Assembly: GCA_027475525.1 (NCBI GenBank)
Contig: JAMWFC010000129.1
Coordinates: forward strand, 1-64,000
Direction: 5' to 3'
DNA length: 64,000 nt
Source: Macrolepiota albuminosa
Lineage: Eukaryota > Basidiomycota > Agaricomycetes > Agaricales > Agaricaceae
The position numbers and the translations under genes are program-made. The notes beneath the pieces are model-generated. The model made no database searches, was not told the origin of the DNA, and saw only the letters and a list, made by a program, of their open reading frames with translations. Of this stretch, positions 34,167 to 36,607 are shown one piece after another (positions within the stretch are counted from its first letter, which is position 1; every line of letters starts with the position of its first letter).

Positions 34167-36607
34167 ATGTCTTTCCGAATTCCAACTCCGCCTCCAGTCC
34201 CGTCTCAGGCTGCTCAAGAAGCCGCCTACGCATACATCGCTAAGGCAAATAATTTCGTTAGGCGCATCGAGGGTGTGGGCGCGGAGGTGCCTTCAAATTT
34301 GGTCATCGCGGTTATGAAGTTATTGGAGCGTTGGTACGAGGTCCGTGTCCTTGGCATAGGCTGGGATAAGGAGATTGAGGTGCGGGAGTGGTGCCGAGCC
34401 CGCTATGTGGATAATCGTGGCACGGAGTGGTTAGCGCCGTTTTCTCGCTTTGTAAGTGCTTTTAGTCTTTGCCGTGTTGCTAGCTGATTAGGTTCCTAGG
34501 CGCCTCCTCCTGTCCCTACCATTGAGGACGAGTTGGAGGATATCCTCTCTGGCGCCTTGCCGATGACGGTAAGCGCTCCCGCGCCTGAGTAAGTATCTCT
34601 GATTTTTGATTTCTGACTTAGCTGTGGTCTGATCTGTCTCCCCATAGCAAACAAGAGGTGTTAGCGCCTCTTGCTAATTTGCAGGTGGACGCTGAGATGG
34701 CGGCTATCCGCGAGAGTGTGCTGGAAGAGGCCTCCCGTGACGCCAAGGAGAGGACCAAGGCCTTAGAGGAGCGAGAGGTCGTTGGCGAGACCCTGGTAGC
34801 CAGTGAGAGGTCGCCAATTGCAAGGAGGCAGGTGTCTGGTGGGAAGGATTCCCGCGCCAGTAGTGCCCAGAGCCCAGCACTGCCGGCAAGCACATCGGGC
34901 TCTCCGGTCAAGCCTGGCAAGACTTTAAAGAAGAAGGTAAGTTTGTGCGTTGTTACCGCTGGCGCTTATCGTTTATCCCATTCTAAGTCTCGCAAGGCTG
35001 CCGCCCCTCGTTACACGGTAAGTTCGTTACGCCAAGGTACTTTTCCTGCTAACCAACCAGTTGACAGGCGCCAACGCAAACTTCCTTTAGCGACGCAGAG
35101 CTGAAGGGTTTGTTGGTGGCAAGACGAGATGAGGCGGTTTTGGATGGAGGAATGGAGGCGGGGGTGGTCTTGCCGGAGATGAAGGACAAGAAGACGGCAA
35201 GCCCAGCGGCAAGGCGGGAGTTCAAGGACTCCCAAGGGGCGGTAAGCACTTTGGCTTTCCTTGCCGTTTTCGTTAACATTCTTGTAGTGCGACAAGTGCT
35301 GGGCCGACAACGACCCAGAGGGGTGTTGGTACCCCACTGGTGGCCAGCCCTGCTACCGGTGCGGTACGCTTAAACGGGCCTGCACTCTGGACGGCGCTAA
35401 GAGTCGCGAACGCGGTGGAGCTCCCGACGCGGTAGTGGAGCGCACTTTCAAGCGTGCCGTCCTCGTCAAAAGGGCGCGGGAGTTCGTTGAGGGGGAGAGG
35501 AAGAAGCAGGCCGCTGGCGACGCGGCGACGATTAGCAAGAGTTCCCTGGCGCTGCCGACGCGTCAAGGGGACGAGTCTGCAACAGTCGGCAACCGTGGCG
35601 CCGGAGAGCGCCAAGGGACTACGGTCCCTTCAAAACGACAAGTCCCTTCGCCCGCCAAGGGGAAGGGCAAGGCCAAACGTGCGCGGGTAGTAGAATCTCC
35701 TCCCCCTACCCCCGAGGACGTGGAGATGGAGGAGCTGGAGAAGGCGCTTGCTGCCAGTCGCCTACCGGTCAGGGACTCGGAGGCTGGGCCAAGTAAGTTG
35801 CTCTCTCCCATTCACCTGAGGGGGCCTTCTCTGCCGGCCGCCGACGAGGACGACGCGGTAATGGACCCGCCGCCAAGGGAAGAGCCTCAGGAGGCGGGAC
35901 CGATGGTGGCGATACCAAGGGGCGAAGGGAGCCCCTCGGCAATGGCTGGCGACGAGGACGCAGATGGGGAGCCAGACGAGACCTTGGCGACCCAGCGCGA
36001 AGGTGACGAGGAGGAGGCCCCCGCCAAGGAGGCGGTAGCGGCAGAAGTAGAGGGAGAAGGGGAGGCAGCGGCAGAAGTAGAGGGAGAAGGGGAGGCAGTG
36101 GCAGAAGTCGCCCGGGAGGAGCCTCAGTGGCGGTGGCTACCGCCTTACGGTAACGTTGCCCCCTGGGAGGTGTCAGATCCTAAGGACGTTGCCGGCCTGG
36201 AGCCTAGGCGCCCCGTGGTCGCCAGGGTCAATCCTGCCTGGACCCCTCAGCCGGAGCCGACGGTCACTGGCGACGCTTTCCAGTGGCTGGGACAAGACCT
36301 CGTCTACCCGGTCATAGCGCTCAACCCTCGCGAAATGCTGGAGAGGTACTCGAGAAGGGCGGCAACGATGGAGTCGACAATGAGTCGGGAGCGGGAACGA
36401 GTCCGCGGTCAATTGATGGCGCTAAGGTTACGTTACTCCAATCTGGGTCGCAGCCTTCGCGTTCTTCGTGATTACCAGAACGACTGCCAAGCCGCCATGG
36501 ATTGGCAGACCGCCAACAACATCTTGCCGGGCGATCTCCTCCCTCTCCGCGATTCCTCCTTGCCGTTGTCGGATAGTTCTCTGCCGTTGGACGATGATAG
36601 CGATTGA
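34167..36607 (+). CDS. Antisense six-exon gene in Gypsy B: Zn2Cys6-like zinc-cluster protein
   Basis: Exons 34167-34451, 34500-34588, 34648-34936, 34988-35017, 35068-35241 and 35288-36607; five introns of 48, 59, 51, 50 and 46 nt with GTAAG-type donors and AG acceptors. Exon lengths sum to 2187 nt, giving 728 codons plus stop, uninterrupted. Start MSFRIPTPPPVPSQAAQEAA; helical first exon with LVIAVMKLLERWYEVRVLG; exon 6 begins with CDKCWADNDPEGCWYP and CYRCGTLKRAC, spacing C-x2-C-x8-C-x8-C-x2-C-x6-C, close to a fungal Zn2Cys6 cluster. Then a basic stretch (KGKGKAKRARVV), a long acidic disordered region with a 30-bp repeat (AAEVEGEGEA, about 36040-36105), a helix rich in Arg (RERERVRGQLMALRLRYSNL) and an acidic end DDDSD. 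It starts 170 bp from the 3' LTR and runs tail-to-tail towards integrase. Function unknown; DNA binding is inferred from the cluster. Confidence 0.82.
35288..35383 (+). other. Zn2Cys6-like cysteine cluster of the antisense gene
   Basis: Six cysteines in 32 residues, encoded from the first codon of exon 6. Spacing fits the six-cysteine binuclear zinc cluster except that the first loop is eight rather than six residues. Confidence 0.8.

What the first reader, a model, noticed from the sequence alone, without database searches (positions are those of the whole stretch)
34167..36607. Intact spliced antisense gene carried by a Ty3/gypsy retrotransposon
Between integrase and 3' LTR, on the strand opposite gag-pol, lies a six-exon gene whose five short canonical introns splice to an uninterrupted 728-codon frame with a Zn2Cys6-like cluster. 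Introns can persist in a retroelement only if they are not spliced from its genomic RNA; an antisense gene meets that condition. Additional antisense ORFs are known in plant Tat-lineage gypsy elements, but a multi-intron zinc-cluster gene in a fungal element would be notable. It could regulate the element, the host, or silence sense transcripts through overlap.
Basis: partly seen in the sequence, partly recalled or inferred. Interest (0 to 1): 0.9.

Follow-up and report, generated by a model that had tools for sequence, protein, structure and literature searches.

The report
Spliced antisense gene in fungal retrotransposons
A family of jumping genes in a Termitomyces-like mushroom fungus carries, back to front, a complete five-intron gene for an unknown cysteine-rich protein that natural selection keeps intact; elements with nearly the same engine carry strikingly different versions of it.

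Summary
Between integrase and 3' LTR of a Ty3/gypsy element (32971-44556), opposite to gag-pol, a six-exon gene reads 730 codons; intron 2 is 34569-34621, not 34589-34647. In 40 copies (the window's included, best-scoring of 542 candidates) 197 of 200 introns are GT-AG, 31 frames are intact, and 37 keep the order LTR, gene, antisense integrase. Selection is purifying: median dN/dS 0.105; four recently broken copies show 0.42-0.95. Three diverged copies keep all five introns. The 15 homologous proteins found are all from Termitomyces; the host is Termitomyces-like. The conserved six-cysteine motif recalls Zn2Cys6 but matches no Pfam family, and its fold is unsettled. Unexpected: the gene is older than its carrier. 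Against three diverged elements its dS is 1.26-1.71, pol dS only 0.17-0.28 and LTR distance about 0.07; within the 40 copies the contrast is weaker, and regions largely have separate histories. [quoted passage not shown] Most likely it encodes an accessory regulator expressed from the 3' LTR or leader; expression and function are untested.

The parts
32971..33996 (-). 3' LTR of the element (relative to gag-pol on the minus strand); holds one extra 77-nt block relative to the 5' LTR
   Evidence: 15 mismatches of 949 between LTRs, 77 gap columns; TG...CA ends; CCAG target duplication at 32967-32970 and 44557-44560
33997..34005 (-). polypurine tract GGGGGGAGA (gag-pol strand)
   Evidence: read from sequence
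33997..34166 (+). leader between LTR and ATG of the antisense gene; presumed antisense promoter / 5' UTR region (inferred)
   Evidence: median JC distance 0.069 among 351 pairs, as low as LTR (0.072)
34167..34451 (+). antisense gene exon 1 (start codon at 34167)
34500..34568 (+). exon 2 (corrected end)
34569..34621 (+). intron 2, corrected, 53 nt (reader: 34589-34647)
34622..34936 (+). exon 3 (corrected start)
34988..35017 (+). exon 4
35068..35241 (+). exon 5
35288..36607 (+). exon 6, to the stop codon
35288..35383 (+). six-cysteine motif CDKCWADNDPEGCWYPTGGQPCYRCGTLKRAC (CX2CX8CX8CX2CX6C)
   Evidence: C322 C325 W326 D328-E332 C334 W335 Y336 of P0003 invariant in the alignment of 15 Termitomyces proteins; dN/dS of residues 293-400 is 0.045
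37037..38004 (-). integrase part of pol (two overlapping frames, split at an exact 77-nt duplication 37482-37635)
38025..40907 (-). RT - RNase H - integrase zinc-binding part of pol
   Evidence: RVT_1 21.3 bits (under its cut-off 29.6), RT_RNaseH 46.1, Integrase_H2C2 58.2
40792..41604 (-). protease frame
   Evidence: gag-asp_proteas 35.4 bits (cut-off 28.2)
41605..43578 (-). gag frame, 657 aa
   Evidence: position, length; one search gives only weak matches under cut-off (DUF4100 18.9, zf-CCHC 10.9 bits)
43591..43607 (-). primer-binding-site region, AATTGGAGCCCACCGCG on the gag-pol strand
   Evidence: read from sequence; the tRNA was not identified
43608..44556 (-). 5' LTR

Best explanation
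The stretch is a bona fide accessory protein-coding gene of a Ty3/gypsy clade. SHOWN: it lies between integrase and 3' LTR, opposite to gag-pol, with five conserved introns and a frame kept by purifying selection; the block with the six-cysteine motif is the most constrained part; the gene's lineages are older than the LTRs and pol that carry them, and regions have separate histories, so elements recombine. INFERRED: it is transcribed away from the 3' LTR or the conserved 170-nt leader, so its introns read as non-introns in the genomic RNA and are passed on; the host splices the antisense RNA; the protein (cysteine cluster, basic KGKGKAKRARV stretch, acidic low-complexity middle, predicted C-terminal helix) works in the nucleus as a regulator of the element's own expression or silencing, as HBZ does for HTLV-1 and as is proposed for plant antisense genes. 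I put about 0.95 on 'functional accessory gene of the element' and about 0.5 on 'nuclear regulator of its own element'.
For: Layout: LTR upstream and integrase downstream in the same arrangement in 37 of 40 copies (window included), in all 3 diverged copies fetched with long flanks, in L055; integrase antisense beyond the gene in the one locus of the L044-L054 family that was extended. Splicing: 197 of 200 introns GT-AG; distinct gap runs in introns 0 of 6 multiples of three, in exons 15 of 20. Selection: 31 of 40 frames intact; NG86 dN/dS median 0.105, range 0.065-0.185 over 329 pairs; all 40 copies, stops ignored, median 0.119, range 0.076-0.483 over 740 pairs; cysteine block 0.045. Copies broken recently have 0.42, 0.48, 0.61 and 0.95 against their nearest intact copy (L040, L039, L008, L032). 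Conservation: 15 distinct Termitomyces proteins in two searches, motif core invariant. Transposed with the element: target duplication and LTRs enclose it.
Against: No RNA data were available, so transcription and splicing are not shown. No known domain, no usable structure, no localisation. Of the 9 broken copies, the five far from any intact copy (dS 0.36-0.45; L024, L026, L034, L035, L036) still have low dN/dS (0.13-0.17), so the dead-copy contrast rests on four, of which L040 rests on very few changes (dS 0.006) and L032 is a truncated copy. The 40 copies are the best-scoring of 542 candidates, so 31 of 40 is not a genome-wide rate. Only intact copies enter the 329-pair dN/dS, which lowers it slightly.
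Confidence: 0.6

Rival explanations
1. The protein is an anti-silencing factor: it protects the element against host chromatin or RNA silencing (as VANC proteins do for VANDAL DNA transposons in Arabidopsis; recalled). Diversity of the gene on a near-constant backbone would then reflect a race with host silencing or specificity for each family's own sequences.
For: Gene types differ deeply between elements that share pol and LTR; a zinc-binding-like motif with a basic stretch fits chromatin or nucleic-acid binding (inference).
Against: No sign of positive selection: block-wise dN/dS is 0.045-0.157 (no site-wise test was made). No homology to any described factor.
Confidence: 0.2
2. The antisense RNA, not the protein, is the working product (overlap with sense transcripts, small RNA, interference).
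For: Antisense transcripts regulate retroelements elsewhere (passages of PMC10186651; PMC7264820). Overlap with the 3' part of the sense RNA is unavoidable if both are made.
Against: Strong selection on amino acids and codon phase and conserved introns are not explained by an RNA function.
Confidence: 0.07
3. The protein serves the replication cycle itself (nucleocapsid-like, RNA export, nuclear import or integration-site choice) rather than regulation.
For: The gene is kept about as well as the integrase segment (dN/dS 0.105 v 0.078) and is in place in 37 of 40 copies.
Against: No similarity to known accessory domains in Pfam. A separate antisense promoter would be an odd way to express a structural protein (inference).
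Confidence: 0.12
4. A host gene picked up by the element as a passenger, or a separate transposon nested in antisense.
For: Five introns suggest it was once acquired as DNA with introns. The divergence boundary lies close to the ATG and the 3' UTR.
Against: Purifying selection and a fixed position across diverged families. No pair of terminal inverted repeats flanks the gene; the longest inverted pair in 33950-37060 is 24 nt, 75%, inside it. No copy outside an element was seen, but flanks were examined only at the 40 copies, L041-L043, L055 and one extended locus of the L044-L054 family; most candidates were not scored.
Confidence: 0.03

Closest known systems
brtn, antisense gene of Boty-like Ty3/gypsy elements in Botrytis cinerea (Zhao et al. 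2011, Virology 417:248; title seen in reference lists; paper not held)
   Same: Antisense gene in a fungal Ty3/gypsy element; [quoted passage not shown]
   Different: Ascomycete element with a CHROMO domain. I could not compare sequences or learn whether brtn has introns.
Antisense aORF-3R of plant elements: Grande gene23, RIRE2, Retand ORF4 with TRP28 / PF04195 (PMC7264820 parts 1-2 of 3 read; PMC11963269 passages)
   Same: Position between pol and 3' LTR, antisense, in most copies, conserved about as well as other element genes; Grande gene23 product is nuclear with its own promoter; TRP28 predicted to bind DNA.
   Different: No TRP28 match here. Five-intron structure, six-cysteine motif, fungal clade; the word 'intron' does not occur in the Retand paper.
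HBZ of HTLV-1 and APH-2/3/4 (review PMC10186651, passages)
   Same: Antisense, spliced, from the 3' LTR; nuclear factor (HBZ) acting on sense expression: a model for how this may work.
   Different: Retroviral bZIP protein with spliced and unspliced forms; no bZIP match here; antisense promoter not shown here.
Zn2Cys6 fungal transcription factors (Pfam PF00172; definition recalled)
   Same: Six cysteines, second half PCYRCxxLKRACT similar to the usual second half; basic stretch downstream.
   Different: First loop has 8 residues instead of 6 and lacks the basic KxKC run (recalled); no profile match at E up to 10.

Membership tests
Ty3/gypsy LTR retrotransposon | Protease, then RT - RNase H - integrase order in pol, with LTRs | tested here: met
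   domain order along minus-strand frames (RVT_1 itself under its cut-off; protease, RNase H and integrase over theirs); LTR pair
Ty3/gypsy LTR retrotransposon | PBS next to the 5' LTR, PPT next to the 3' LTR, short target duplication | tested here: met
   TGGAGCCCACCGCG just after the 5' LTR, GGGGGGAGA just before the 3' LTR, CCAG on both sides; matching tRNA not identified
antisense additional ORF between pol and 3' LTR (aORF-3R) | Coding, antisense, between pol and 3' LTR | tested here: met
antisense additional ORF between pol and 3' LTR (aORF-3R) | Present and conserved in most copies of the family | tested here: inconclusive
   37 of 40 copies with the layout, 31 of 40 intact, but copies were found by the gene itself (best 40 of 542 candidates); elements without it were not sought
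antisense additional ORF between pol and 3' LTR (aORF-3R) | Transcribed from its own promoter; nuclear protein (as Grande gene23) | not testable with these tools
   no RNA or cell data
Retand-type TRP28 antisense protein (PF04195) | TRP28 domain | tested here: not met
   no match
brtn of Boty | Sequence homology to BRTN | not tested
   paper not held; no BRTN sequence at hand
Zn2Cys6 binuclear cluster (PF00172) | Pfam profile match | tested here: not met
   Searches (E up to 1; E up to 10): no Zn_clus
Zn2Cys6 binuclear cluster (PF00172) | Spacing CX2CX6CX5-12CX2CX6-8C (recalled) | tested here: not met
   CX2CX8CX8CX2CX6C in the window and in P0001 and P0003
Zn2Cys6 binuclear cluster (PF00172) | Two-helix zinc cluster fold | tested here: inconclusive
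   AlphaFold2 mean pLDDT 51.8 and 49.7; motif region mostly under 50, so no fold search was made
HBZ-like antisense retroviral regulator | bZIP domain | tested here: not met
   no Pfam match at E up to 1

The most novel reading that the evidence does not exclude
The antisense gene is the element's specificity locus. Elements that share almost the same LTR and pol carry deeply diverged antisense proteins, maintained for much longer than any backbone and reshuffled by recombination, because each protein acts best on its own type (self-regulation or immunity to related elements, or matched anti-silencing). It would be a eukaryotic retroelement counterpart of a phage immunity region, kept diverse by frequency-dependent selection.
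Probability: 0.15. Interest if true: 0.88.

Novelty: new variant of a known kind. Interest (0 to 1): 0.66.

Why it matters
[quoted passage not shown] This family gives a gene with five introns, roughly 650 motif copies in one genome, clear purifying selection, and natural combinations of different antisense genes on almost the same LTR and pol. That makes function and specificity directly testable. It also shows plainly how a retroelement can keep introns: by coding antisense.

Tried and rejected
Zn2Cys6 membership: Pfam at E up to 10, PDB profile search (best eL24, E 0.28, not the cysteine block) and two AlphaFold runs gave nothing usable; I made no fold search because the models were of low confidence. 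Nested-transposon origin: no flanking terminal repeats. Simple 'divergence island' claim: the raw distance of the gene exceeds LTR, spacer and integrase all at once in only 81 of 780 pairs within the 40-copy set, because the spacer as first cut held the gene's diverged 3' UTR; split up, spacer is 0.099 and 3' UTR 0.348. I therefore rest the claim on synonymous sites and on the three diverged copies. Integrase synonymous distance (0.289) is itself higher than LTR distance, so within that set the excess in the gene is modest (0.42; gene dS above integrase dS in 249 of 351 pairs). Organism: the last protein search used the Rab8/Ypt2 frame; best named hits are Termitomyces at 84 and 82%. Antisense RNA as sole product: opposed by codon-phase selection. 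The first spliced-model script failed because I had required a pyrimidine before the acceptor AG; relaxed.

Literature searches for novelty: (listings seen). None of the listed titles or abstract openings describes a multi-intron antisense gene in a basidiomycete gypsy element; several lists were cut, and subscription papers are mostly not held.

Full report
WHAT IS THERE. The window is part of a 100.1-Mb, 129-contig genome. A Ty3/gypsy element spans 32971-44556. Its LTRs lie at 32971-33996 and 43608-44556 and have TG...CA ends. There is a CCAG target duplication, a TGGAGCCCACCGCG primer-site region beside the 5' LTR and a GGGGGGAGA purine tract beside the 3' LTR. Gag, protease, RT-RNase H and integrase frames run on the minus strand from 43578 to 37037. 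The LTRs differ at 15 of 949 aligned sites, plus one 77-nt block, so the insertion is not brand new. On the plus strand, between integrase and the 3' LTR, lies the gene.

THE GENE MODEL. Four of five introns stand. Intron 2 should be 34569-34621. The stretch 34622-34647 that this adds to exon 3 gives LWSDLSPHS in 31 of 31 intact copies, with all 5 variable sites at third codon positions; P0003 has LWTELSPDS, and in three diverged copies the equivalent model aligns better in every case. Alternative splicing is possible. The corrected protein has 730 residues.

MORE THAN CHANCE. No shuffle of 300 reached the 439-codon run of exon 6 (maximum 337). Forty copies, the window's own included, were scored out of 542 candidates in the genome. 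In these, 197 of 200 introns keep GT-AG and 31 frames are intact. Of distinct gap runs against the window, 0 of 6 in introns and 15 of 20 in exons are multiples of three. In the intact copies variable sites fall at 23%, 20% and 62% of codon positions 1, 2 and 3, and 46% in intron interiors.

SELECTION. Pairwise NG86 dN/dS among 27 distinct intact coding sequences has median 0.105 (0.065-0.185) over the 329 of 351 pairs with dS above 0.05. By block it is 0.069 (exon 1), 0.085 (middle), 0.045 (cysteine block), 0.157 (variable acidic part) and 0.086 (C terminus); the integrase segment gives 0.078. With all 40 copies and stops ignored the median is 0.119 (740 pairs). Four of nine broken copies have a close intact relative (dS 0.006 to 0.077); their dN/dS is 0.42, 0.48, 0.61 and 0.95. 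The other five are compared with distant intact copies (dS 0.36-0.45) and still show 0.13-0.17. This is what one expects if the gene is selected in lineages that transpose and released in dead copies, but the contrast rests on four copies, one with very few changes.

IT BELONGS TO THE ELEMENT. In 37 of 40 copies an LTR lies upstream and integrase downstream in the same arrangement. L014 and L032 lack integrase within the 1.5 kb fetched, and L033 lacks a detected LTR. Three diverged copies fetched with long flanks (L041, L042, L043) have the same order with pol antisense; the aligned proteins of L041 and L042 are 68% and 65% identical to the window's. L055 also has LTR and integrase in place. 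A further family (L044-L054; ten loci align to L047 at about 92-100%) carries a gene 53% identical in the cysteine block. Introns 1 and 5 can be read there at the same places. None of these eleven loci shows this element's LTR or integrase within 1.5 kb, but beyond the one that was extended (L057) integrase is antisense and 92% identical in protein. A back-translated DNDPEGCWY pattern with up to three mismatches has 652 matches in the genome, and 0 for the reversed control.

RELATIVES. Protein searches gave 4 hits with the single sequence and 13 with the alignment A1: 15 distinct hypothetical proteins, all of Termitomyces strains, none with a Pfam domain. Only 7992 word-sharing candidates were scored in each, so absence elsewhere is weak evidence. 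The host itself is Termitomyces-like: its Rab8/Ypt2 frame best matches Termitomyces (84%, 82%, 77%, 77%), ahead of Sphagnurus, Tephrocybe and Arthromyces (72%). In the alignment of the 15 proteins C-x2-C-W-x-DNDPE-x-CWY is invariant and the other three cysteines nearly so.

WHAT THE PROTEIN IS. The six cysteines are spaced CX2CX8CX8CX2CX6C. The usual Zn2Cys6 spacing (recalled) has six residues in the first loop and a basic run there; this motif has neither, and no Zn2Cys6 model matches at E up to 10. AlphaFold2 was confident mainly about helices near residues 129-197, 362-387 and 541-603 of P0003. I call it a six-cysteine, probably zinc-binding motif of unknown fold.

THE UNEXPECTED PART. The gene is older than its carrier. 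Between the window element and L041, L042, L043, the gene has dS 1.31, 1.71, 1.26 and dN 0.27-0.31, while pol has dS 0.17, 0.23, 0.28 and dN 0.015-0.025. Between the 40 copies and these three, median distances are LTR 0.070, integrase 0.071, gene 0.407 (by BLAST, which counts the 77-nt gap, the window LTR is 85-86% identical). In 200-nt steps identity to these three is 88-98% in LTR, leader and integrase but 53-88% through the gene, dropping in the step at the ATG and recovering after the 3' UTR. Within the 40-copy set the same shape is weaker: LTR 0.072, leader 0.069, spacer 0.099, integrase dS 0.289; gene dS 0.42 overall, 0.78 for exon 1, 0.22 for the middle and 0.99 for the C terminus. Raw distances alone do not show it: gene above LTR, spacer and integrase at once in 81 of 780 pairs. 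Distances of many regions hardly correlate (LTR-integrase rho 0.15, integrase-exon 1 -0.12, integrase-C terminus -0.02, exon 1-C terminus 0.23), although interleaved halves of one region do (0.61-0.90); others do to a degree (LTR-cysteine block 0.55, LTR-C terminus 0.44, LTR-exon 3 0.42, exon 3-cysteine block 0.40). Copies share steps of 99-100% identity with the window inside genes that elsewhere fall to 61-90%. Recombination between co-packaged RNAs is the natural cause (inference). Why old gene types persist on young backbones is open. NG86 dS above 1 is rough, and only three diverged loci with pol were compared.

HOW IT MOST LIKELY WORKS. An antisense promoter in the 3' LTR or the conserved leader makes an RNA whose introns are removed by the host. 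The sense genomic RNA carries the same introns as complementary, non-spliceable sequence, so they survive reverse transcription. The protein is then probably nuclear and acts on the element's own expression or silencing. Steps up to a selected spliced reading frame are supported by sequence; promoter, RNA, localisation and action are inferred from the parallels of HBZ (passages) and plant antisense genes.

KNOWN OR NEW. [quoted passage not shown] the paper is not held). What differs here, as far as I could see, is the basidiomycete clade, the five introns, the motif, and the mismatch in age between gene and backbone. I file it as a new variant of a known kind.

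Noticed in passing
window 3224, 3412, 4613, 5248, 5756, 6897, 7083, 8098, 9514, 37482, 40901 and LTR 33207-33360: Head-to-tail duplications of exactly 77 nt (97-100% identical) occur in the host-gene region, pol and one LTR; the two LTRs of the element differ by one such block and most other copies lack the one at 37482. They look like an assembly artefact and break reading frames.
   Followed up: partly
window 26720-32561: A second gypsy-like element with 207-nt terminal direct repeats, 97% identical; its gag and pol frames are on the plus strand and only distantly like the main element's.
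   Followed up: no
window 45088-50201: A degraded plus-strand gypsy relative, split by a solo LTR (47186-48110), is followed by a relic of the six-cysteine gene at 49647-50201 on the SAME strand as its pol: either a rearrangement or an older family with the gene in sense. A related locus (L056) had no pol match in the 2.8 kb fetched.
   Followed up: partly
window 51539-54840: Truncated third element: LTR, weak gene relic 52868-53045 on the plus strand, pol on the minus strand, the same antisense order as in the main element.
   Followed up: partly
L057 49-417 (+): In the L047 family a further plus-strand frame of 122 aa lies between the six-cysteine gene and the antisense integrase: possibly a second antisense gene.
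   Followed up: no
window 23737-23961 and 25124-25348: Perfect 225-nt inverted repeat with 1162 nt between the arms, perhaps a DNA transposon.
   Followed up: no
L004, L007, L014, L032: These copies have further LTR stretches of the same family close by: elements seem to insert into or beside each other, which may help recombination.
   Followed up: no
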